This document shows positions 2,717-24,081 of a DNA stretch of 24,081 nucleotides, in pieces. Source of the DNA: a virus; the IMG/VR virus record IMGVR_UViG_3300047994_000236, positions 1-24,081 of that record; one strand, 5' to 3'. A program made the position numbers and the translations under genes. The number at the start of each line of letters is the position of its first letter. Within the stretch, counting starts at the first letter, position 1. The notes under the pieces were generated by a model. That model was not told the origin of the DNA, did not search any database, and saw nothing but the letters and a program-made list of their open reading frames with translations.

Positions 2717-3733
2717 TTAAAAATCATCCCATCCTTTGACAACTTCTGATCTCGAGTATTCTGTAACTTTAGTTTCGAAGAAATTTTCACGTTTCTCTAC
2801 TGACAAATATTCATAAGGATTCTTTGTATAACCCTTAAAGACAATACCTAAACCGAGTAATTTAGTTCGTTGATTAGTTAAATATTTAACAAAGTCTTCG
2901 GTACTATTTGTAGAAATACCGAGAATACGATCACCATAAACTTCTATACCCCATTCAATCTCTTGTTCGGCAGCCTTAACCAATGCATTTAAGAGTATTT
3001 GTTTATCATCCTCGTTGTTTAAGTCAAATAATTCTCGAATAATATTTGCAAACATATTAACATGAGTTACTTCGTCATTTTCAATATACTTAATCATTTT
3101 TGCAACATTTGCAACCTTGTTACGTGACGCAAGTTGATAGAAGAATTGAAATCCATTATAAAAATAAATACCTTCTAGTGCAAAGTCTGCAGCAATAGCA
3201 ATCTTAAAGTTATTCAATGTTTTTTCATCAATAAACTGTTGAAACTGACTTGCAATAAACTTGTTACGTTTTAACAATAAAGGATTATTTCTCCAATAAT
3301 TATAAATTTCTTCACGTTCTACATTTGGGAAAAGTTCTAATAATAAATATTGATAAGATTGACTATGAATAAGTTCCTGAAATGCCTGTATAGTAAATAG
3401 CCCACTAACCTCTGGTGCTGTGATATAATCAGCAAGATTTGGTAAGTTTGAAACTTGCATACTATCGAGTGCAATCAAAAATGAAATTGTATTTTTAAAT
3501 GCATCCATTTCATCTTTAGTTAATTCTTTTATAGTAACTTTATCATCGACTAAAGATACTTTTTCTGGAATCCAAAAATTATTTACCATAATCTTATATA
3601 GTTTACTTGCCCATTGGTACTTAACACTATTTAGGTTAAAAATACCGGTGGCGGCGCCATTAATAATGTTTCTGGCGCTCATAGAGTCGTCGCCAAACTC
3701 GTTAAATATTGTTTTCGGTGTTAGTTCTACCAT
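2717..3733 (-). CDS. nrdB: Ribonucleoside-diphosphate reductase, class Ia small (beta) subunit
   Basis: Supplies the diiron-tyrosyl radical used by the large subunit to reduce ribonucleotides to dNTP precursors in the cytoplasm. At 338 residues it is slightly shorter than the E. coli protein. The ligand set is complete by motif: Asp90 (ALDSMQ), Glu120 and His123 (QELIHSQSY), Glu187 (ALEGIYFY), Glu221 and His224 (NDEVTH). Tyr127, four residues after His123, matches the radical tyrosine, so this is a conventional class Ia subunit. The C-terminus FFETKVTEYSRSEVVKGWDD plus Phe is the tail that docks into the large subunit. It follows nrdA by 9 nt in one operon. No intron or intein interrupts it, although homing endonucleases are nearby. 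Confidence 0.97.
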   Translation of the reverse strand: MVELTPKTIFNEFGDDSMSARNIINGAATGIFNLNSVKYQWASKLYKIMVNNFWIPEKVSLVDDKVTIKELTKDEMDAFKNTISFLIALDSMQVSNLPNLADYITAPEVSGLFTIQAFQELIHSQSYQYLLLELFPNVEREEIYNYWRNNPLLLKRNKFIASQFQQFIDEKTLNNFKIAIAADFALEGIYFYNGFQFFYQLASRNKVANVAKMIKYIENDEVTHVNMFANIIRELFDLNNEDDKQILLNALVKAAEQEIEWGIEVYGDRILGISTNSTEDFVKYLTNQRTKLLGLGIVFKGYTKNPYEYLSVEKRENFFETKVTEYSRSEVVKGWDDF

Positions 3734-3742
3734 ATATTTTCC

Positions 3743-5959
3743 TTATCCACTACAGGCCAAACAATTTTCTTCTTCCGATTTACCAGTAGCATCGGCTGAA
3801 GCATTATTTTTAATTGTCCTCACATAATATATTGCTTTTATTTCATTTTCGTGTGCATAATGAATAGCATCATAAAGTTCTTTAGCTTCAAAGTTTTCTT
3901 TTCGTTGATCAAATATTAGTTCCATTGAACAACCAGTGTCTATGAATTTTTGTAATTCAGCTACTACATTAATAATTTCTTTTGCAGTATGTTTTGGAAA
4001 TGTCTTTGAATAACCTAATGGATTATCTTTAAGAAATTTTGCAACTACAACAAGTTTACCATTTTTATTATCTTCCGAAAAGAATGCATTATATACCGGT
4101 AATACACTTGCACTTGAATCCATATAGATTGATGTCGAGGTATTAGGGGCTGGGCTAGTTAACTGACTATTTCTTATTCCAAATTCATCAATTCCGGCCT
4201 GGGCTGCCGACCAATCATATTTTCCAGATGCATGTTCTTTAAACTGTGCAATTCGGTTACCATTTTTCCATTCGGAATTATCAAATGCCTGAAATGAACC
4301 AAATCTTTTTGCAAGATCAATACTTTGCATAACTGCATGATATTCTACACACTCGGAAATTTCACGAATATAATCTAAGTCTCTAAAGTTAAGATATTCT
4401 CTTGCTAAATGATCGTGTAATCCTTGCAAACCAATTCCGATTGTTCTGTATCTATTATTATGATTTTCTGTTATAGATATTGGAGCATTTGTGAGACTAA
4501 TACCGTAATCAAGTATTTTGCATGTAAGTGCTGATATTTTACCCAGTTCTGTAAAGTTTTTAATATTACCCAGTACAATAGAGGCTAGATTGCAAACGTG
4601 GCCTAGTTTATCAGGCATAACATTTGAAAATGATTCGGTACAAAGATTTACATTAGTGATGCCTACGTTATCTGTATCATTTTTATTGGGATTATATTTA
4701 TTTATTGTATCAGTAAATGCAATATAAGGTAAACCAGTCTCGAATTGCATACGCATAATAATTTTCATTAAATCACGAGCATTATCAAACTTACGAGTAA
4801 TCTCAATTTTACCTTCTGCTGCTGCCTGTTCGATTTTTAAGTATGCGTTTGTAAAATCTTCGCCGTATAATCCGCGAATATCTATTCCTAATTTTTTCTT
4901 TACTTCAAAAGGAGAAAATGTTGTCCAACTACCTTTTTCTTTATCTCTCTTCATAAAAATATCAGGAATAGTAACTTGTGGGAAAATATCATAAGCCTTC
5001 ATTCTTGGATCACCGTGCTCGGTTTGCATATCTAGAAAATCTAAAATGTCATTATGCCATATCGGTAATGCAATGGTTCCGGCGCCCGCTCTTTTTCCGC
5101 CTTGGTTAACTGCAACTAATGTGTCATTAAGAATTTTAATCCATTGCACAACAGTACCGGCTGCATTTTTATATCCATTCACATCGTCGCCCTTAGCACG
5201 TAGATAACCTAAGAAAATACCAAGACCTCCGCCATTCTTCGAAATTTGAGCTACATTATGCACATTATTAAAAATACTGGTTAAATCATCCTCCATTGCA
5301 ATAATGAAACAGGATGCAATATTTCCTCCTTTGCGCAAATTGGATAAGAAAGGAGTTGCTAAAGAAATCTTACGTTGTGATAATGCATTGTACACTTCTT
5401 TTACAAATTTGATACGAGTTTCTTTTGGTTCGAGTTGACCGAATCTCATAGCATTTACCATATGCATATGTTGATTTAGTTCATACTTTCCTAAATATTT
5501 CATTTTTGCTGTAATTAAGCTAGCATAGCTATAATCTAAATCACGATTCATTTTTATAGAAGTTGCTAGTTCATCGAGTTCTACATCAGAATATATTTCA
5601 ATTAATTCTTTTGTATAATATCCTTTTTTAACATTATAATGTACTACTTCTTTAAATGATTTTCCACGTAATTCAAAGTTTGCCCACTCATCCATTGCTA
5701 GAGCACGTCCGGCAACATTTACCCAATCAGGCGATGATGGTGTAGCAAGTTGAATAGCATGCTGAATAACATTTAATTGAATATCACGAGTTTTTATTCC
5801 TGGCTTCAAGAATTGGTCAAGTTTAGATTCAAGTTCCAGTGGATTAACATCCTGTCCTTCTGAAGCCATTTGAATCGACTTCTTTATCTTTGATACATCG
5901 TATGATTCTTTTGTCCCGTCGCGTTTCGTTACAAATATCTCATTCTTCATTGATACCAT
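3743..5959 (-). CDS. nrdA: Ribonucleoside-diphosphate reductase, class Ia large (alpha) subunit
   Basis: Catalytic subunit of ribonucleotide reductase, 738 residues, close to the family length. Residues 5-95 form an ATP-cone, so dATP/ATP activity control is likely. Active-site residues follow the E. coli order: redox Cys217 (NIASCF), Asn438, thiyl Cys440 and Glu442 in NVNLCTE, and second redox Cys456 (HVCNLAS). The stacked radical-transfer pair Tyr711-Tyr712 lies in YYVRT. The C-terminal pair Cys733/Cys736 (ENCLACSG) passes electrons from thioredoxin or glutaredoxin. The first ATG is chosen because GAGAG lies about 10 nt upstream; a second ATG is three codons in. It is co-transcribed with nrdB. 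Phage copies raise dNTP supply during infection. Confidence 0.97.
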   Translation of the reverse strand: MVSMKNEIFVTKRDGTKESYDVSKIKKSIQMASEGQDVNPLELESKLDQFLKPGIKTRDIQLNVIQHAIQLATPSSPDWVNVAGRALAMDEWANFELRGKSFKEVVHYNVKKGYYTKELIEIYSDVELDELATSIKMNRDLDYSYASLITAKMKYLGKYELNQHMHMVNAMRFGQLEPKETRIKFVKEVYNALSQRKISLATPFLSNLRKGGNIASCFIIAMEDDLTSIFNNVHNVAQISKNGGGLGIFLGYLRAKGDDVNGYKNAAGTVVQWIKILNDTLVAVNQGGKRAGAGTIALPIWHNDILDFLDMQTEHGDPRMKAYDIFPQVTIPDIFMKRDKEKGSWTTFSPFEVKKKLGIDIRGLYGEDFTNAYLKIEQAAAEGKIEITRKFDNARDLMKIIMRMQFETGLPYIAFTDTINKYNPNKNDTDNVGITNVNLCTESFSNVMPDKLGHVCNLASIVLGNIKNFTELGKISALTCKILDYGISLTNAPISITENHNNRYRTIGIGLQGLHDHLAREYLNFRDLDYIREISECVEYHAVMQSIDLAKRFGSFQAFDNSEWKNGNRIAQFKEHASGKYDWSAAQAGIDEFGIRNSQLTSPAPNTSTSIYMDSSASVLPVYNAFFSEDNKNGKLVVVAKFLKDNPLGYSKTFPKHTAKEIINVVAELQKFIDTGCSMELIFDQRKENFEAKELYDAIHYAHENEIKAIYYVRTIKNNASADATGKSEEENCLACSG

Positions 5960-5979
5960 AATCTTTTTTCTCTCTTCTC

Positions 5980-6417
5980 TTAGTTTATTGTTTTTATATG
6001 TTTTTGTGAATACACTTTTATCACTTTTATTCCTGTGCAGGCGGCAGAAAATTTACTTACCAAACCTAATTCATAGTTCAGAACAAACTGATCATCTATT
6101 ACAGGTAATAGATAGACACCGGTATCATCTTCGACAAGATATAAATCTAATTTGACAGATATAGGAATTAATGATAACGTATAGAAAATCAAGAGACTAA
6201 TTGAACTAGTGCAGAATGATCCGTGAAAAAGAATCTCCCATGGTGTAGGCCAGTCGGCCGGTGAATAATAATCTATAGATCGTGATCCAAATGGAATATT
6301 AGCACAGAATTTAGCTACTTCTTCTAACTGTTTATCTAAGGTCATAGATTTTAAATCGCTCCTTAGTTTTTTCCAAAGAAGAAGTCGTTCCTCACCGTGT
6401 ATTGTATTCCATATCAT
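5980..6417 (-). CDS. Conserved phage hypothetical protein upstream of nrdA (145 aa)
   Basis: Function not recognised. The N-terminal helix (residues 10-40, Lys/Leu-rich) leads into a motif-like block, IPFGSRSIDYYSPADWPTPW, then EILFHGSFCTSS and a hydrophobic strand or helix (ISLLIFYTLSL). The remainder looks beta-rich (LDLYLVEDDTGVYLLPVIDD). The block PTPWEILFxGxFCxS, with cysteine and serine after a Trp-Pro rich loop, appears conserved in hypothetical proteins of large phages and resembles the nucleophile helix start of papain/transglutaminase-like folds. That likeness is weak. It ends 21 nt before nrdA and is probably co-transcribed with it. Confidence 0.75.
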   Translation of the reverse strand: MIWNTIHGEERLLLWKKLRSDLKSMTLDKQLEEVAKFCANIPFGSRSIDYYSPADWPTPWEILFHGSFCTSSISLLIFYTLSLIPISVKLDLYLVEDDTGVYLLPVIDDQFVLNYELGLVSKFSAACTGIKVIKVYSQKHIKTIN

Positions 6418-6471: not shown

Positions 6472-7116
6472 TCATTTTAATTTTAATCCCTTATTCCAGG
6501 GAATTTTTCCCTTCATTGGGGATGGACGACCTTTTAGAGCTTCACTTATTTTTTTCTTTGTCTCTTCTGTTATTATCTGCTTTTTCCTGATGTCAGACAT
6601 AACTATTCTGTGCTCGGGATGTTCTTCTATAAATCTAATTCTTCCGGCTGATATGGCCTGTTTTCTCTCTTCGGTGTATTCTCCAAATTTCATACCTTTA
6701 GTGGGTGAAATTCTTCCAGTATTTGTCATCGATAATTTATCCTTAGACAACTGGGACCATTCCCGGGCGCCTCTTCCGCCTGAATCTAAATTAGTTAATG
6801 TACCTGTATTAAGATTTCGTCTTCCGTATAATAAAATAAGTTCTGTCTCTCGTAAATATGCATCAGATAACGTAATATTTTCGTATGGGAATTTATATAC
6901 TAATGTTCCACCATTTTCTATAACTTCATTTATTACATTTAATTTATATAGATTTGCTGACTTAGATGTTTTCTTTGTATTTTTATACTTAGTTGCTTCG
7001 TAAAAATGATCTTCATACCTCTGATGTGCGCGACCTTTACGATCATGTTTTCCGTAGCCGACATAGATTGGAATATCTTCAATTGAACTCCATATTTCAT
7101 AGATATAATATGCCAT
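6472..7116 (-). CDS. GIY-YIG family homing endonuclease with NUMOD3 repeats
   Basis: Free-standing homing nuclease of the type that T4 carries as Seg proteins. The N-terminal catalytic domain has the GIY-YIG strands YYIYEIW and IYVGYGK (about residues 3-23), a following basic region with HQRYEDH, and a Glu in the helix YLRETELILLYGRRN (Glu about 91) that fits the metal-binding Glu. The C-terminal half carries DNA-contacting NUMOD3-like motifs: SPTKGMKFGEYTEERKQAIS near 137 and RPSPMKGKIPWNKG near 197. It probably nicks or cuts a related phage genome lacking the gene. It sits between exonuclease and nrd genes, both intact. A GATAAATA late box lies 24 nt before the ATG, as for several T4 homing genes. 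Confidence 0.93.
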   Translation of the reverse strand: MAYYIYEIWSSIEDIPIYVGYGKHDRKGRAHQRYEDHFYEATKYKNTKKTSKSANLYKLNVINEVIENGGTLVYKFPYENITLSDAYLRETELILLYGRRNLNTGTLTNLDSGGRGAREWSQLSKDKLSMTNTGRISPTKGMKFGEYTEERKQAISAGRIRFIEEHPEHRIVMSDIRKKQIITEETKKKISEALKGRPSPMKGKIPWNKGLKLK

Positions 7117-7139: not shown

Positions 7140-7808
7140 CTATTTATCTTCGCCATATAGTTTATAGTATTTTTCTAAGGATGCCAACCAAAGCCCAGTC
7201 GCTCTATCAAACTCCGATCCTTCGAAAATAAATTCCTGGTATTTTGCATCACGTGTAGCAATCATTACTACGCCTCTTTGTATATTTGTTCCATACATTT
7301 CGTTGTGAGCAAGGGCATAAGCAGCAAGCTGGGCTGCATAATCATCAATCCATTCTTTCTTTTTTTCTCGCAGACTATTCTTAAAATCCATTATTGACGG
7401 CACGCCTTCCCAACATCCAACAAGGTCTGTTGTGCCGGCATAAAGATCTTTAGAATAAAGAGATACTTCTGATCCCCATATTTCATTTATTTTCGGGAAT
7501 GCATTTTTAATGATTACCTTGGCAAGTGTCTGTGCATAGAATGTACCTGTAATAGGTTGCCCAAGAATGTAATTCTCAAGATTCTTGTGCATTCCGTTAC
7601 CTATACCAGAAGATTGTGCGGTAATTTTATTAGCCTCATCCTCCCCTACACGCTCTCTCCATTCTTTTAAATGTGTCGTGTCTTTTGTTTTAGAAAGGAT
7701 TGTAGTAACTGATACGAGTTTTTTTCCGTCCGGTGTCTCGTATTTTCTTATACCTTTTTCTTCGGCTCTTGTTAGAGCCATATAATCGAATTTTTTATTT
7801 ATTATCAT
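7140..7808 (-). CDS. PD-(D/E)XK family exonuclease
   Basis: A 222-residue nuclease-fold protein resembling the phage/mitochondrial MGME1-type exonuclease group. Visible in order: SVTTILS at 33-39, a Gly-rich turn with His74 and Glu78 (NGMHKNLENY), Glu114, Asp128 in AGTTDLVG, Asp141 and Lys143 in MDFKNS, and Gln160 in DDYAAQLAAYA. These correspond to motifs I-IV of the PD-(D/E)XK fold, where Asp128, Asp141 and Lys143 would bind the metal and catalyse phosphodiester cleavage. Likely roles are degrading host DNA or processing replication and recombination ends. The start is uncertain: neither the ATG at 7808 nor the one at 7781 has a good ribosome site. Confidence 0.88.
   Translation of the reverse strand: MIINKKFDYMALTRAEEKGIRKYETPDGKKLVSVTTILSKTKDTTHLKEWRERVGEDEANKITAQSSGIGNGMHKNLENYILGQPITGTFYAQTLAKVIIKNAFPKINEIWGSEVSLYSKDLYAGTTDLVGCWEGVPSIMDFKNSLREKKKEWIDDYAAQLAAYALAHNEMYGTNIQRGVVMIATRDAKYQEFIFEGSEFDRATGLWLASLEKYYKLYGEDK
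7141..7148 (-). promoter_or_regulatory. T4-type late promoter for the GIY-YIG gene
   Basis: Minus-strand GATAAATA overlaps the stop of the exonuclease gene and lies 24 nt before the homing endonuclease ATG, the same spacing as at the late genes. Confidence 0.65.
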
Positions 7809-7832
7809 CTAATTTGTTATAAGCATTAACGA

Positions 7833-7861
7833 AGTGTAACACAAAGAGCATCACGAGTCAA
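7833..7861 (-). promoter_or_regulatory. Sigma70-like promoter for the exonuclease gene
   Basis: Minus-strand -35 box TTGACT (7856-7861) and -10 box TACACT (7833-7838), 17 nt apart. An ATG (7826) begins exactly 6 nt after the -10 box and opens a five-codon frame (MLITN) whose TAG immediately precedes the exonuclease ATG in the same frame. Confidence 0.45.
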
Positions 7862-7865
7862 TATC

Positions 7866-9035
7866 TTACCAACAAATTACCCATTCAAAAGTTGTTCCGG
7901 TCGCTGGATTTGTTATTTGAGAAATAGTATAACCTAAATTTGTAAAATAAGTTATAACTGAATTCATTTGTAATTGTATTGGCTTATTTGTCTGTGTTCC
8001 TTGCCATACTTGATAATATAAATTAGGATTAGTTCCGTATGTATTGTTCGAAGTATTAACAGTAACAATCGCTGGAGTCGCTGGGGGATTTGGTAATGCC
8101 GCAGTTGATGGATTAAATACAGTACCAATAGAACCGGAAGTATATTCAGATCCATTTGTTAAAACCGATATAGAAGCAACAGAAGTGCCAGCAAGTGTTA
8201 CTGAGGTAGTCGCCCCTGTACCGGGATTAGATATCACCAAATAAGGCGAAACTGTAGCATAACCCGACCCCGTATTCACAACTACTACTGAAGTAATAAC
8301 ACCGGAATTATCTGTAAGAACATTAGCATAAAATCCAGTTCCTGTTGGATAAGGTAATAATGGATTTAATGTCGAAACTATTTGTGCTGTAGTAACACTT
8401 TGCTGATATCCTGTTCCGGGAGTCATTACAGCAACCGCAAGAATTGCACCTGTAACACTAATCGAAGTAATTTTGAATACTGCGTTAGTATATGCAGGAT
8501 CCGGTAATACTGCTCGTGTAGCAATAATAGAATCGGCTAATGTATAACCTGTTCCACCAGAAATTATATTTACATTTACTATTTCGCCATTACCGTCAAC
8601 AAGAGGCTGAAGATTTGCACCTGTTCCTGCTAAAGAACTTACAGAAAGTGTTGCGGAAACAGGTTCATATCCTGTTCCGCCGTTTGTTACAGTAACACCT
8701 AATATATTACCACCGTTAGTAGTTAATGTCGCTAATGCACCAGATGCAGTAGCACCTATAGGCGGAGTAAAACGAATAGATGGAGTATCGTTTACATAAC
8801 CACTGCCACCATTTACTACTGTAACTGATGATACCCCGGATACAAATGTCATTGGTGTAGTTCCGCCTACAGTTGTACACATTTGTCCACCACCCGGCTG
8901 ACATTGACTTGACGCTGCTAAGACTGCCTGTTGCAGCATGCAGATTTCTTCCCATACAACTGGTAAATTAGTGGCCAGTTGTTCCATTTGAGAAGCATTA
9001 GGAAATCCTGTACCCGGTGTGCAACAATCAGCCAT
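7866..9035 (-). CDS. Virion structural protein with six GG[ST]GY beta repeats (389 aa)
   Basis: The N-terminal 60 residues contain a Cys-rich start (MADCCTPG), a helix (EEICMLQQAVL) and a Gly/Cys linker. The rest is Thr/Val/Gly-rich beta repeats. Each repeat has a strand followed by a GxGY turn: VTVVNGGSGY at 71, VTVTNGGTGY at 114, VNIISGGTGY at 155, VAVMTPGTGY at 201, VVVVNTGSGY at 250 and the diverged ISVLTNGSEY at 289. A C-terminal domain (320-389) ends EWVICW. Such repeats are typical of phage fibres and decoration proteins. The frame opens 63 nt earlier, but the ATG at 9035 is chosen: AAGGA lies 9-10 nt upstream, and it starts just after the upstream stop instead of overlapping it by 59 nt. 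Confidence 0.85.
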   Translation of the reverse strand: MADCCTPGTGFPNASQMEQLATNLPVVWEEICMLQQAVLAASSQCQPGGGQMCTTVGGTTPMTFVSGVSSVTVVNGGSGYVNDTPSIRFTPPIGATASGALATLTTNGGNILGVTVTNGGTGYEPVSATLSVSSLAGTGANLQPLVDGNGEIVNVNIISGGTGYTLADSIIATRAVLPDPAYTNAVFKITSISVTGAILAVAVMTPGTGYQQSVTTAQIVSTLNPLLPYPTGTGFYANVLTDNSGVITSVVVVNTGSGYATVSPYLVISNPGTGATTSVTLAGTSVASISVLTNGSEYTSGSIGTVFNPSTAALPNPPATPAIVTVNTSNNTYGTNPNLYYQVWQGTQTNKPIQLQMNSVITYFTNLGYTISQITNPATGTTFEWVICW

Positions 9036-19146: not shown

Positions 19147-20487
19147 TTACCGTTTCTTTAAGAATGCTCTAAGAGTACTCATTCCAGCAAGAGGATTTTC
19201 TTCGGATTCTCTTGCTGTAATTTTAGTTATTTCACCTGATTCTGCATCTAATTTTTCTCCCGATTTAATGATACTTTTTTTCTTCAGTTGATCATATATG
19301 TTCTTTGAAGTTGCTGTTACTGCATTATCGTCGTCTTCATCGAGATCATAAATTCTTAAACTTTTATTATTAAATGATAAATCTACCTTCGAACCAACAC
19401 CAGAACTAGAGCGTGTCTTAATAAATTGAATTTGATATCTTCCGCTTTCCTTCATTGCTGCACTAGTAAAAATACCAATTACATTATCTGCTGTATTTAC
19501 TTTAGAAATGCCGCCAGCAATGTGGCTAGGATCATATTCAATTTCTTCATACGATCCTCGGTTCAATTGAGATGCTGAAACTGTAACAGTATCAAGTTCT
19601 ATTGCAAGATTTCTTAATTCTTCAGTTACATATTTGTCCTTAATGAATAAATTTTCTGCAGAAATCTTTTTAGACATCGGCATCATTAAGTCTAAATAGT
19701 CAACAAGAATTGCATCAACTTTTATCTTTGCATGTATTTCATATTCTTTAATGTATGCACGAATATCATTAGATGTGCATCCATTTGGAAGTTGCTTAAT
19801 TCGTAATGTTCCCTTACTTTTCTGTTGTGAAGAACGAACTTTTATGTGAACATCATCGATATTTCTCATTACCTCTCGAGTTTCATATCCGGTGTGCATT
19901 GCATCTATACGCATAGCACAAAGTTTTTCACTTAATTCAAGCGAAAGATAAACTACGTTTAATCCAGCTTGAGCCCAATTGACTGCGAGATTTTGAAGGA
20001 AAAGTGATTTGCCCGCACCGCTATTATGGGATGAGATTCCATTTGTATAATACCTATGATTTTCAGAATCAATAACAAGATCAAATACTAAATCCTTAGC
20101 GCCCGTGTTTATTACGTTCTTTACTATTTTTTGCCCATTTTTTGTTTTCAATGCATACCCGGGGCTGAGATTTATAGGAGCTATCCACCCACCGTGCATA
20201 TTTTCAAAGCAATGCAATCCCGATGAATGCACATGTGTATCATCTACAAAAGTTGTTTTATAAATATCGTAGGATCCTTTACTAATAAGCCCTGTAACAG
20301 ATACTAAACCATCGACTGAATCTACAAACCACTTATCTTCCGTAGAATGAAGATCAAGAACTTTATACTCCTGTGGTTGCATATCTTGGTAGAGTTTTTC
20401 AAAAAGTTTTATGTCTTTTTCTTTATAAAACAATAGTTTATCTAGGGAATAGAACTGCGAGAGATATTTTATTTTTTCACATATCAT
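19147..20487 (-). CDS. Replicative DNA helicase (gp41/DnaB-type), C-terminal part preceded by C-intein
   Basis: Residues 1-155 are the C-terminal part of a split intein and 156-446 the helicase extein. Intein features: block B-like DDTHVHSSG with a THVH (TxxH) pattern, block F-like DLVFDLVIDSENHRYYTNG, and block G ISSHN with His154 and terminal Asn155. Ser156 is the +1 nucleophile. The extein opens with SGAGKS, the second half of the Walker A motif, then Walker B-like VDAILVDYLDLM, the sensor-like VSASQLNRGS, a loop AGGISKVNTADNV and an arginine-containing FIKTRSSSGVG. Joined to the N-part it gives a 480-residue helicase, close to T4 gp41. The start overlaps the endonuclease stop as ATGA. Confidence 0.93.
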   Translation of the reverse strand: MICEKIKYLSQFYSLDKLLFYKEKDIKLFEKLYQDMQPQEYKVLDLHSTEDKWFVDSVDGLVSVTGLISKGSYDIYKTTFVDDTHVHSSGLHCFENMHGGWIAPINLSPGYALKTKNGQKIVKNVINTGAKDLVFDLVIDSENHRYYTNGISSHNSGAGKSLFLQNLAVNWAQAGLNVVYLSLELSEKLCAMRIDAMHTGYETREVMRNIDDVHIKVRSSQQKSKGTLRIKQLPNGCTSNDIRAYIKEYEIHAKIKVDAILVDYLDLMMPMSKKISAENLFIKDKYVTEELRNLAIELDTVTVSASQLNRGSYEEIEYDPSHIAGGISKVNTADNVIGIFTSAAMKESGRYQIQFIKTRSSSGVGSKVDLSFNNKSLRIYDLDEDDDNAVTATSKNIYDQLKKKSIIKSGEKLDAESGEITKITARESEENPLAGMSTLRAFLKKR

Positions 20488-21563
20488 TTTATCTTCAAAT
20501 CCTTATTTTTTAGATCTCTATTCCAGAATACATAATATTTACAATCAGGATATTTTCTCAGAATGTGATTGCGTTTTATCATATCATTATCATAGCTCAT
20601 GCCATATGTTCCTAAATGAGGTAGTTTCTTACCATCGACCTCGACTACACAATTCCTTATCTGTTCATCATAATCTGAAAAGTTTATATGGCCGGGGCCG
20701 TGAAATTCCATTATTGCCGTAAGTTGGGCATGATTCCTGTCCGAAAATATTGCCAAATCATATCTCCTAAATCCTATCTCATCAATCCATTGATAGAACT
20801 GATTTTTTGGAGCACCGAACTTACATAATTCTTCATCAATATTATTTTGTTCCAGGAACAATCTAATGGCTTGCATTTCTTGTCCATTTTCATTATAAAT
20901 CTGTGGAATAGTCTTGAGGTAATGAGCCTTAATTTCCTCAAATGATTTATTTTTCCATGTAGCTTTTCTTTTATTACAGGAATATGTGTATTTCTTTGCA
21001 CCTTCCACTAAACCATATTTTTCTATATAAAATGCTAAATCTCTCTTTTGATTATCTGAAACTAGTTCATCTGCCGTACTATCTGTGTATCCTTTTTCTA
21101 TCCAATATTCTTTACATCTAATACTATGCTTCCTATGATCTCTGTTTTTAGAAGACCTGTGTGACATTATTTGCTGATGCTCAGATACTTTTCTAATACT
21201 TTCTTCTTCAGAATATCCCTTGCAAATCCAATATTCTTTACAGTTTGGCCGACCCTTCCGTGTAGATTTGGTGTGTGCATTCCATTTTTCTTTCCCCAGT
21301 ATTTCTCCGTATAAAATACAAAAATAGTCTACGGACATTCTATTATGCACCAGCAACTCTTTTTCGCGGCCGATGAAATTGACAATACCCTGGTCAATAA
21401 AATGCGCCAATCGTGTATATTTGTCCTGCGATCTTCTGTATCCATACAGATCAAAGTACGTTTCGAGATTATTTTTTTGTAATTCGGATAGCTTATAATC
21501 TTTCGATAGTATATTCTGTACGATTTTTATACCTAAAAACTTCTCAACATTTGTCTTCTTCAT
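20484..21563 (-). CDS. Vsr-like homing endonuclease gene nested between split-intein halves (359 aa)
   Basis: Sits exactly between the two helicase fragments, overlapping the first by 20 nt and the second by 4 nt. The DNA-binding part carries two copies of a CKEYWIxKGY motif (108-117 and 150-159), each near a YGxxxG segment (85 and 183), as in phage homing nucleases. The C-terminal domain has YDLAIF (Asp269), IMEFHGPGH (Glu286, His288), a later DNDMIKRNHIL and a strand YYVFWNRD. This D-E-x-H layout fits the Vsr/PD-(D/E)XK-like homing family reported in fractured genes of environmental phages; the assignment to that family is by pattern. Likely role: cut helicase genes lacking the intein and spread the cassette by repair. 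Confidence 0.85.
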   Translation of the reverse strand: MKKTNVEKFLGIKIVQNILSKDYKLSELQKNNLETYFDLYGYRRSQDKYTRLAHFIDQGIVNFIGREKELLVHNRMSVDYFCILYGEILGKEKWNAHTKSTRKGRPNCKEYWICKGYSEEESIRKVSEHQQIMSHRSSKNRDHRKHSIRCKEYWIEKGYTDSTADELVSDNQKRDLAFYIEKYGLVEGAKKYTYSCNKRKATWKNKSFEEIKAHYLKTIPQIYNENGQEMQAIRLFLEQNNIDEELCKFGAPKNQFYQWIDEIGFRRYDLAIFSDRNHAQLTAIMEFHGPGHINFSDYDEQIRNCVVEVDGKKLPHLGTYGMSYDNDMIKRNHILRKYPDCKYYVFWNRDLKNKDLKIK

Positions 21564-22221
21564 TTACGGTTCCTGTATGCTGGCCAAACTGGCTAAAGTA
21601 TTTATCTAAATCTAATACTTTTACGGCCATTACAACAGTATCAGCGGTCACGCATTGTCCAGCAAAAATCGTAATCTCCCCCTTGTTGAGTCCTCCATAA
21701 AGTTTTTCATCCACCGTTTTCCAGCCGGTGGAGCACTGCCCCTTACCTTCCCTGATCGCTTCGAGCCTCGCTTTTGGATTAGCATAGTAATCCGTTCCGA
21801 GATCCTTGACAAGGGCAATTTGCACGGCCGCCTTAATCGTTGCTTCAACTTCGCCATACCTTCCTTCATCTAATAGTGTCGGAGATCCCAGAATAGCATC
21901 TCGCAAGGCTTTATGTTTACAAAAGGTTTCAAACTCTCTAAGAAACCAGTTCTCGTGAGTTGCTGCCTCTAACTCCATAATAGACACTTCTTTTTTCGTA
22001 ACTGCTTTTATCTGTTCTACAGATGGTATATTTGAAAAATCAGTGCTATATGATTCAATGAATGCAACAGTATCTCTGTTCTGTCTATCATCAAAATATT
22101 CCGACTTTAGAATACCCTTACAACGAATAAAAAGATCAGGTTTGCTCATCATAAAGCTAATAAACAAATCCTCAATTTCCTTACTATAATTGCTTATTTC
22201 ACTTGCGTTTTCTTCTTGCAT
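21544..22221 (-). CDS. Replicative DNA helicase (gp41/DnaB-type), N-terminal part ending in N-intein
   Basis: Residues 1-189 are the N-terminal helical domain and linker of a gp41-type helicase, ending YGGLNKGEITIFAGQ, the first half of the P-loop. Residue 190 is Cys1 of an intein: CVTADTVVMAVKVLDLDKYF fits block A. The fragment stops only 36 residues into the intein, before any block B, so the split is near the N-terminal end, as in the atypical split inteins described from phage terminase genes. Alone this protein cannot bind ATP. Trans-splicing with the C-part would give GQ-SGAGKS. The start lies inside the primase gene end (23-nt overlap), so expression is coupled to primase. Confidence 0.93.
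   Translation of the reverse strand: MQEENASEISNYSKEIEDLFISFMMSKPDLFIRCKGILKSEYFDDRQNRDTVAFIESYSTDFSNIPSVEQIKAVTKKEVSIMELEAATHENWFLREFETFCKHKALRDAILGSPTLLDEGRYGEVEATIKAAVQIALVKDLGTDYYANPKARLEAIREGKGQCSTGWKTVDEKLYGGLNKGEITIFAGQCVTADTVVMAVKVLDLDKYFSQFGQHTGTVNEEDKC
21599..21606 (-). promoter_or_regulatory. Late promoter box inside the N-intein coding region
   Basis: GATAAATA on the minus strand, 35 nt before the endonuclease ATG, coding for part of LDLDKY of the N-intein. It matches the late boxes elsewhere and could give the endonuclease separate late expression. Confidence 0.5.
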
Positions 22222-23254
22222 TAGCTTGAATTTCCCATGTTAGTCTAATCTTATCCTTACCGTGAATTGCAGATGCAATTATTGAATGAGTAGTAAGCAA
22301 TCTGCCGTATTTTTCTGCTGCTTTTGCTGCATCCTTTATATTATCGTCCCACTTAGGGAAAGATACGGCCCAGTTGTTTTCTATTGCAACTTCTACAAGA
22401 TCCCGGCCTTTTTCATCTCTATCGGGGCAGACTATTACCTGTTTCTGCAATCGGTCGATAATGTCGACTTTTGCTTGGCCTATCTCACCAAGAATACTCA
22501 CACCGTCTACTGTCCATGCGTCCAATACACCTTCATTTACAATAACGTATTTACGCGACCAACCGTCTTGATGATCTAAGTTATAGACAAAGTCTGTAGG
22601 ACATTGCTGATAGTATTTAGGCGGTCCGGATTTAGGTGGGTCATAATACAATCGAGAAGTATAACCTACTATTCTATTTTTAAATGTATATGGTATTATT
22701 AATCTTTGATTCAGCTGATGTTTTGTGTCCGGTGTCCAGTAAAATTCATTAAGATTGTAAATGTGACGATTGATTGCATATTGTGTCACATTTAGAAACA
22801 TCGAATCATCTAAGCCGTAATCTAACCACTGTTGAATAGATAAAGAATCCGCAGGCAGCTCGATAGTTTTCCATTTTTGAAATAGTGACTTTAGTTTATC
22901 ACCCTGCTCTGAAGGTATTTCACCATCTCGTATCTGTTTTATACTATTCTTTAGTTTAAATATCTCAAACTTGATATGTTCTATAAACTTTTCATCTATG
23001 CTTATTTGCCTAAGAAAAAATTCAAAGGATTTCGACATATCCATATCTTCTGTATAACCGGCTTTAAAAGCACAATTAAAACAATTCAGAGAAATTGATT
23101 GAGTATTGAACTGTATACCAAATCTACTTCGTGTATCTATTCCGTGCCCTCTTGATTGACAGAGCATACAATTTCTTTTTAAAAATCCTTTAGGTGCCTG
23201 TTTTAATGGACCTATATTTTGTAAGATGGCGTCACGTAGAATTTCGATAATCAT
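22199..23254 (-). CDS. DNA primase, T4 gp61-like
   Basis: Makes RNA primers for the lagging strand with the gp41-type helicase encoded next to it. At 351 residues it is close to T4 gp61. A zinc-binding ribbon uses Cys29, Cys32 (CMLC) and Cys58, Cys61 (CFNC). The catalytic TOPRIM domain begins at YVIVNEGVLDAW with Glu241 and continues to VIVCPDRDEKG with Asp278 and Asp280. A downstream WDDNIKDAAKAAEKYG block is typical of phage primases of this kind. An extended -10 promoter lies only 6 nt before the chosen ATG and there is no ribosome site, so the mRNA may be leaderless. An internal start would cut into the zinc ribbon, which argues against it. Confidence 0.93.
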   Translation of the reverse strand: MIIEILRDAILQNIGPLKQAPKGFLKRNCMLCQSRGHGIDTRSRFGIQFNTQSISLNCFNCAFKAGYTEDMDMSKSFEFFLRQISIDEKFIEHIKFEIFKLKNSIKQIRDGEIPSEQGDKLKSLFQKWKTIELPADSLSIQQWLDYGLDDSMFLNVTQYAINRHIYNLNEFYWTPDTKHQLNQRLIIPYTFKNRIVGYTSRLYYDPPKSGPPKYYQQCPTDFVYNLDHQDGWSRKYVIVNEGVLDAWTVDGVSILGEIGQAKVDIIDRLQKQVIVCPDRDEKGRDLVEVAIENNWAVSFPKWDDNIKDAAKAAEKYGRLLTTHSIIASAIHGKDKIRLTWEIQANARRKRK

Positions 23255-23896: not shown

Positions 23897-24081
23897 TTTT
23901 TATTAAATAGCTTGGAATAAGAATATGCAGTGTCTGGATCTGACATGATTGTCTTCTCTGCTTCGGGCCATCTGCCTTTAATTACGTTCCTGGCATAAGC
24001 ATATGCAGTGCGTGGATCTGACATGATTGTCTTCTCTGCTTCGGGCCATCTGCCTTTAATTACATCTTTTGAATATGAATA
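23893..24081 (-). CDS. C-terminal end of a protein made of 26-residue repeats (cut by window edge)
   Basis: Sixty-two codons and a stop remain. The translation is two near-identical copies of a 26-residue unit with the core VIKGRWPEAEKTIMSDP followed by a YxYxxxVIKG lead, then the end YSYSKLFNKK. I recall similar YAxxVIKGRWPEAE repeats in other marine phage and bacterial proteins, probably forming paired helices of an elongated solenoid, but no function is established. The stop overlaps the start of the DUF6321-like gene (ATGA). Length and N-terminus lie outside the window. Confidence 0.8.
   Translation of the reverse strand, partial: YSYSKDVIKGRWPEAEKTIMSDPRTAYAYARNVIKGRWPEAEKTIMSDPDTAYSYSKLFNKK
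23914..24069 (-). repeat. 78-bp coding tandem repeat, two copies
   Basis: Two units of 78 nt (offset 23923 to 24001). Between atatgcagtg and tttaattac, about 70 bases, only two differ. Third-codon positions are conserved too, pointing to a recent duplication or conversion. Confidence 0.9.

What the first reader, a model, noticed from the sequence alone, without database searches (positions are those of the whole stretch)
19147..22221. Replicative helicase fractured in its Walker A motif by an atypically split intein, with a homing endonuclease gene between the halves
The N-part ends at FAGQ followed by intein Cys1 and a 36-residue N-intein. The C-part carries a 155-residue C-intein with a THVH block, terminal His-Asn and +1 Ser, then SGAGKS. 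Trans-splicing would restore GQSGAGKS, so ATPase activity depends on splicing. Fractured phage genes with split inteins and Vsr-like nucleases are known from environmental sequences, and atypical near-N-terminal splits are known in terminases. The combination here (gp41-type helicase, P-loop site, very short N-intein, nested Vsr-like nuclease) may be an undescribed variant. An N-intein this short would also be useful biochemically if active.
Basis: partly seen in the sequence, partly recalled or inferred. Interest (0 to 1): 0.92.

Follow-up and report, generated by a model that had tools for sequence, protein, structure and literature searches.

The report
Phage helicase broken by split intein
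A virus of bacteria makes its DNA-unwinding enzyme as two separate proteins that are predicted to join themselves together at the exact spot where the enzyme grips its fuel; this is a new example of a kind already known, but the relatives found here show that the kind is widespread, that the gene is sometimes in three pieces, and that the pieces can fuse again.

Summary
On the minus strand, a gp41/DnaB-type helicase gene is broken after FAGQ by a 36-aa N-intein. A 359-aa nuclease-like ORF follows, then a 155-aa C-intein ending HN|SGAGKS. Joining the exteins gives a 480-aa helicase that aligns gap-free across the junction with intact relatives (88.8% identity to L005). The same arrangement recurs in three other contigs, plus one cut at its end; it is not an assembly error. 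Both intein parts and the nuclease ORF are under purifying selection.

Corrections: the "THVH block" is not conserved (block B is SSGLH); a 36-aa N-intein is long for this family; the nuclease is only weakly Vsr-like. Nor is the combination unique. The best match is VidaL, a characterised atypically split intein (6vgv, Z 15.6). All 80 best IMG/VR relatives (of 290) sit in the same helicase Walker A loop, with N-inteins of 14-46 aa.

Verdict: new member of a known kind (VidaL-type split intein in a fractured gene). The surroundings are more interesting: three nuclease families in one gap, nuclease loss without refusion, one natural refusion, helicases in three pieces with two split inteins, and relatives in UvsX (cultured Pseudomonas phages) and PhoH. 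Trans-splicing itself was not tested.

The parts
21655..22221 (-). N-extein: first 189 aa of the gp41/DnaB-type replicative helicase, ending FAGQ in the Walker A loop
   Evidence: phrog_19 E 7e-18, profile 151-360
21547..21654 (-). N-intein, 36 aa from Cys1 (CVTADT..); conserved core about residues 1-22, variable tail
   Evidence: pN/pS 0.37 across four members
20484..21563 (-). Nested nuclease-like ORF, 359 aa; N-terminal helical DNA-binding-like part, C-terminal PD-(D/E)xK/Vsr-like fold (about residues 219-359)
   Evidence: homologues only inside this helicase intein; AF2 pLDDT 82; TnsA Z 6.7, Vsr 1cw0 Z 6.0; no Pfam, PHROG or PDB sequence match
20023..20487 (-). C-intein, 155 aa; residues 1-35 are extra helices, residues 36-155 the HINT domain; block B SSGLH, block F NHRYY, block G SHN
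   Evidence: VidaL 6vgv Z 15.6 over model 31-158, Foldseek E 1.1e-8, profile E 6.6e-24
20212..20214 (-). Codon of block-B histidine (His92 of the C-part), invariant in 26 members
19150..20022 (-). C-extein: SGAGKS.. 291 aa, rest of the helicase ATPase domain; +1 residue Ser
   Evidence: phrog_19 E 3e-49, profile 362-603; DnaB_C; PDB DnaB-like helicases
22199..23254 (-). Primase gene directly upstream, overlaps the N-part start; same order in relatives
   Evidence: phrog_47

Best explanation
The locus is a mobile, atypically split class 1 intein of the VidaL type, inserted in the Walker A loop of the phage's only visible replicative helicase, with a homing-endonuclease-like gene in the gap between the halves. 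Mechanism: the two precursors are translated from one overlapping gene set. The N-intein docks into the preformed HINT core of the C-intein. Cys1 and Ser+1 carry out the usual acyl shift and transesterification, and Asn155 cyclisation releases the intein. The exteins are joined as FAGQ-SGAGKS, giving a 480-aa helicase that can bind ATP only after joining. The nuclease gene spreads the insert by cutting intein-free P-loop alleles, a conserved DNA target. Shown here: anatomy, homology and fold of the C-intein, catalytic residues, purifying selection, intein-free sister alleles, patchy distribution, and a fused allele of a related intein. Inferred: splicing activity, dependence of ATPase on splicing, and nuclease activity and target.
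For: Anatomy. Spliced product aligns with intact helicases without a gap at the junction, 88.8% identity to L005. Same arrangement in L002, L003, L024, with L004 cut. C-intein: VidaL is the best match by profile (E 6.6e-24), Foldseek (E 1.1e-8) and VIA-align (Z 15.6). Cys1 in every N-intein found; block-B His, Asp136 and SHN invariant in 26 C-inteins. pN/pS 0.37 (N-intein), 0.34 (C-intein), 0.38 (nuclease) at near-saturated synonymous divergence, exteins 0.14-0.15. Contiguous inteins at the same site: L072, L098, L107/L113. L077 is a fused form of the L054-type split intein: 1206 nt, a multiple of three, is missing at a 4-bp AATT microhomology and the frame is kept. The intein-bearing helicases do not form a clade (AU test). 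No second helicase in ten records, which show only the two or three pieces. Nuclease family found only in this intein.
Against: No splicing assay. The window and most relatives are fragments, so an intact second helicase is not excluded. Block B has Ser, not the common Thr, before xxH. The nuclease has no sequence-profile match, and the structural match is weak (Z 6-7, within the noise range the tool states). The intein halves evolve faster than the exteins.
Confidence: 0.88

Rival explanations
1. Genes in pieces without splicing: the two helicase fragments assemble non-covalently and the intein parts are inert leftovers.
For: Known for phage Aeh1 NrdA and phage 25 gene 43, broken by nuclease genes (PMC2988022).
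Against: The break lies inside the ATP-binding loop; intein catalytic residues are invariant across very distant members; purifying selection on both intein parts; a fused related allele keeps one open frame through the whole intein.
Confidence: 0.05
2. The intein is decaying and this phage relies on another helicase; the locus is a dead fractured gene.
For: The window is a fragment, so another helicase elsewhere in the genome cannot be excluded.
Against: Exteins under strong purifying selection (pN/pS 0.14-0.15); conserved place next to primase; no second helicase in ten related records.
Confidence: 0.04
3. Assembly artefact that joins unrelated pieces.
For: Metagenome contig only; no read data.
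Against: Recurs with strongly diverged sequence (nuclease 57-62% identical) in contigs of different samples and in many deeper relatives.
Confidence: 0.01
4. Trans-splicing is a regulatory gate that delays helicase activity, not merely a harmless parasite.
For: P-loop DnaB intein of M. smegmatis is redox-responsive (PMC6195587); helicase activity here would need two proteins to meet.
Against: Most close relatives lack the intein, so the gate is dispensable.
Confidence: 0.08

Closest known systems
VidaL split intein (PDB 6vgv, 6vgw)
   Same: Best homologue of the C-intein by sequence profile, Foldseek and VIA-align; Cys1; split after the first strands (S1 position, PMC13014065); +1 Ser-Gly.
   Different: VidaL N-intein is 16 aa; here 36 aa plus three extra helices at the C-intein start. 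VidaL's flank (SGK) fits UvsX rather than gp41 (the host gene of VidaL was not checked in a paper).
Fractured genes (Dassa et al. 2009, doi 10.1093/nar/gkp095; read only as a citation, content from memory)
   Same: Conserved phage DNA enzyme broken by a split intein with a free-standing endonuclease gene between the halves.
   Different: From memory those splits are at the usual place (long N-intein); here the split is near the N-terminus, and the nuclease is of a family without a library match.
gp41-1 and gp41-8 split inteins
   Same: Same host protein family; gp41-1 is a structural match (Z 13.5).
   Different: Other insertion sites and canonical split. The SQLNR site (gp41-8 site, from memory) is occupied in L024, L038-L040, L050-L053 and L063, not in the window.
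AceL-TerL and GOS-TerL atypically split inteins
   Same: Short N-inteins of 25 and 37 aa (PMC11766414).
   Different: Terminase host; split after the first helix (S2).
M. smegmatis DnaBi1 (P-loop) and DnaBi2 (H4) inteins (PMC6195587)
   Same: Same P-loop site in a DnaB-family helicase; P-loop Ser also serves in splicing.
   Different: Contiguous; DnaBi1 is class 3, here class 1 with Cys1.

Membership tests
Class 1 intein (HINT domain) | Cys or Ser at position 1, terminal His-Asn, Ser/Thr/Cys at +1 | tested here: met
   Cys1, His154-Asn155, Ser+1; conserved across the family
Class 1 intein (HINT domain) | Block B TxxH | tested here: inconclusive
Class 1 intein (HINT domain) | HINT fold | tested here: met
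   AF2 pLDDT 86; VidaL Z 15.6
Class 1 intein (HINT domain) | Protein splicing activity | not testable with these tools
   needs co-expression
Atypically split intein (VidaL type, S1) | Short N-intein ending after the first strands, C-intein holding the rest | tested here: met
   Model residues 31-158 align with VidaL residues 17-144; N-intein 36 aa
Fractured gene (Dassa 2009) | Enzyme gene broken by a split intein with an endonuclease gene between the parts | tested here: met
   endonuclease nature of the ORF itself only by position and weak fold match
Vsr-like / EDxHD homing endonuclease | Vsr-type nuclease fold and catalytic residues | tested here: inconclusive
   C-terminal domain Z 6.0 to Vsr and 6.7 to TnsA; Foldseek no match; no family match; invariant E286 and H292 in EFHGPGH
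gp41/DnaB-type replicative helicase | PHROG 19 / DnaB_C match over both halves and Walker A after joining | tested here: met

The most novel reading that the evidence does not exclude
A phage-borne lineage of atypically split inteins specialised on Walker A loops (gp41 helicase, UvsX, PhoH), in which the split is stable by itself: nuclease genes of at least three families occupy, decay in and vanish from the same gap without the halves fusing, and one case of refusion is caught. In at least two lineages the replicative helicase is made as three proteins and needs two separate trans-splicing reactions.
Probability: 0.5. Interest if true: 0.65.

Novelty: new member of a known kind. Interest (0 to 1): 0.52.

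Why it matters
The window adds a distinct member (extra helices at the split, N-intein of about 22 conserved residues) to a small set of characterised atypically split inteins, which are wanted as ligation tools. A homologous UvsX split intein in culturable Pseudomonas phages allows a test in living phage.

Tried and rejected
THVH as block B: rejected, not conserved. 'Very short N-intein': rejected, it is among the longest of this family. Single origin of the intein-bearing jumbo helicases: rejected by AU test. Nuclease identification by Pfam, PHROGs and PDB sequence: nothing; Foldseek nothing. Family in bacterial or archaeal genomes: no relative in genome contigs. RNA-level explanation (intron): no Rfam match in the window. 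Dassa 2009 and one VidaL paper tried by DOI are not held, so the host gene of VidaL and earlier reports of helicase P-loop members (a recalled name, T4Lh-1) could not be checked. A search for reports of natural three-piece helicases returned nothing.

Full report
OBSERVATION. On the minus strand of the window lie a primase gene (23254..22199), the helicase N-part (22221..21544), a 359-aa ORF (21563..20484) and the helicase C-part (20487..19147). The N-part has 189 helicase residues ending FAGQ and then 36 residues from Cys1. The C-part has 155 residues ending HN and then SGAGKS. The open frames overlap by 20 and 4 nt. PHROG 19 matches the N-part up to profile position 360 and the C-part from 362. 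Joined, the exteins give 480 aa that align with intact relatives without a gap at the junction: 88.8% identity to L005, 73-80% to L017, L020 and L023.

CLOSE RELATIVES. The same intein stands in L002, L003, L024 and (N-part off the contig) L004; close relatives with a complete site read FAGQ-SGAGKS or a near variant without interruption. PA5oct and MIJ3, cultured jumbo phages, also have an intact helicase. On the helicase tree the five intein-bearing rows are scattered, need five changes of state, and one clade is rejected. This fits repeated gain or loss of a mobile insert. Synonymous divergence of the inteins is as high as that of the exteins, so no recent transfer among these members is shown.

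CATALYTIC PARTS. In 26 diverse C-inteins the block-B His (His92), Asp136 and SHN are invariant, besides NHRYYTN, which was itself a search pattern and so is biased. N-intein residues 1-22 are conserved in the jumbo clade; the tail varies in sequence and length (36 or 46 aa) and overlaps the start of the next gene.

FOLD. The C-intein model (pLDDT 86) is a HINT domain from residue 36 on. The best solved structure is VidaL by profile, Foldseek and VIA-align (Z 15.6, 126 residues, 2.7 A). VidaL's aligned part starts at residue 17, that is, at about its own split, so the split point is the same; residues 1-35 here are three helices that VidaL lacks. They may pair with the longer N-intein (inference).

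THE NUCLEASE ORF. No family library or PDB sequence matches it. The model (pLDDT 82, pTM 0.46) has a helical N-terminal part and a C-terminal domain whose weak structural matches are mostly restriction-endonuclease-like (TnsA Z 6.7, Vsr Z 6.0); the tool warns that such Z values can be noise, and the top row is a mitoribosome protein. All 12 homologous loci found in IMG/VR that I inspected carry it inside this helicase intein. PA5oct gp275, which sits in the UvsX intein, is a distant relative (29.8% over 149 residues). I regard it as a homing endonuclease by position and company, with moderate confidence.

THE FAMILY. A profile of five C-inteins finds 290 relatives in IMG/VR. The 80 best are all in the helicase Walker A loop, in 30 clusters at 90% identity including the window. 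The insertion point has two registers..G|SGAGKS or ..G|TGVGKS, and ..GGSG|SGKS. N-inteins are 14-46 aa. The gap holds: the window's nuclease family (plus strand), a 601-aa homing endonuclease of phrog_3339 (plus strand), or an HNH gene of phrog_655, mostly on the opposite strand. In one cluster the gap shrinks from 692 nt with a 210-aa HNH gene (L114, L118), to 375 nt with a 75-aa remnant (L109, L111), to 61 nt (L106, L110) and 22 nt (L117, L119, L124, L125), still split. L091 has no gap and no nuclease. Contiguous inteins at the site occur in L072, L098 and L107/L113. L077 is the L054-type intein with 1206 nt missing at an AATT microhomology, in frame, giving one 622-aa protein. Thus the split does not depend on the nuclease gene and can be reversed.

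TWO SPLIT INTEINS IN ONE HELICASE. In L024 the helicase is three proteins: N-part (3217-3939), middle part with C-intein 1 and N-intein 2 (4992-6194), and C-part with C-intein 2 (7521-8051), with two different nuclease-like genes in the gaps. L050-L053 show the same plan with another first nuclease family; the second nuclease gene is broken in L051/L052 and whole in L053. L063 has the P-loop intein split and the second one contiguous. The second site is SQLNR|S. M. smegmatis DnaB has contiguous inteins in its P-loop and in motif H4 (PMC6195587); that SQLNR is the H4 position is my inference.

OTHER HOSTS. Close homologues of VidaL sit in UvsX of cultured Pseudomonas phages (PA5oct gp276, 81 aa, ends GESG|CLPETAKVKIRLSKKQS; gp275 nuclease-like; gp274 starts with the C-intein, HN|SGKS, and is annotated ESI-MS/MS), contiguous in UvsX of Salicola phage SCTP-2, and in a PhoH gene of LR756500. 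The MIJ3 paper reports only a PolB split intein (PMC6892783).

MECHANISM AND LIMITS. The sequence evidence supports a working trans-splicing intein: selection on both parts, intact catalytic residues, a fused relative. It does not show splicing. The known counter-model, broken genes that work without splicing (PMC2988022), is unlikely here because the break is within the ATP-binding loop.

NOVELTY. By kind this is a VidaL-type atypically split intein in a fractured gene; natural N-inteins of 15-37 aa are known (PMC13014065; PMC11766414). The reach of the family, the changing nuclease genes, the refusion and the three-piece helicases are, as far as the held library shows, not described; that library lacks the key papers of 2009-2020.

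Noticed in passing
L024 3217-8051; L050-L053 (e.g. L053 633-5878): Helicase encoded as three proteins by two split inteins, each gap with a nuclease-like gene; two lineages with different first nuclease families.
   Followed up: partly
L077 1743-3611: Contiguous intein that looks like a fused form of the split L054-type intein: 1206 nt lost at a 4-bp microhomology, frame kept.
   Followed up: yes
L106, L109-L111, L114, L117-L119, L124, L125: Graded loss of the HNH gene between the intein halves (692, 375, 61, 22 nt) while the intein stays split.
   Followed up: partly
L134 2260-5266 (PA5oct gp276-gp274): Cultured Pseudomonas phages carry an apparently unannotated atypically split VidaL-like intein in UvsX with a nuclease-like gene between the parts.
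   Followed up: partly
L135 1656-4918 (LR756500): PhoH-like ATPase broken in its Walker A loop by the same kind of split intein with a 430-aa nuclease-like ORF.
   Followed up: partly
L146 2743-4713 (Salicola phage SCTP-2 gp204): UvsX with two contiguous inteins, annotated hypothetical.
   Followed up: no
L090 4104-4877, L102 1984-2820: A plus-strand ORF with no nuclease match lies between the intein halves.
   Followed up: no
window 6472-7116 (-): Free-standing GIY-YIG/NUMOD3 homing endonuclease next to an exonuclease gene.
   Followed up: no
L038 3593-4471: ORF resembling a GIY-YIG endonuclease between primase and helicase genes, in a relative whose helicase has a split intein at SQLNR.
   Followed up: no
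window 23913-24063: Two 78-bp direct repeats in frame (26-aa protein repeat) at the contig end.
   Followed up: no
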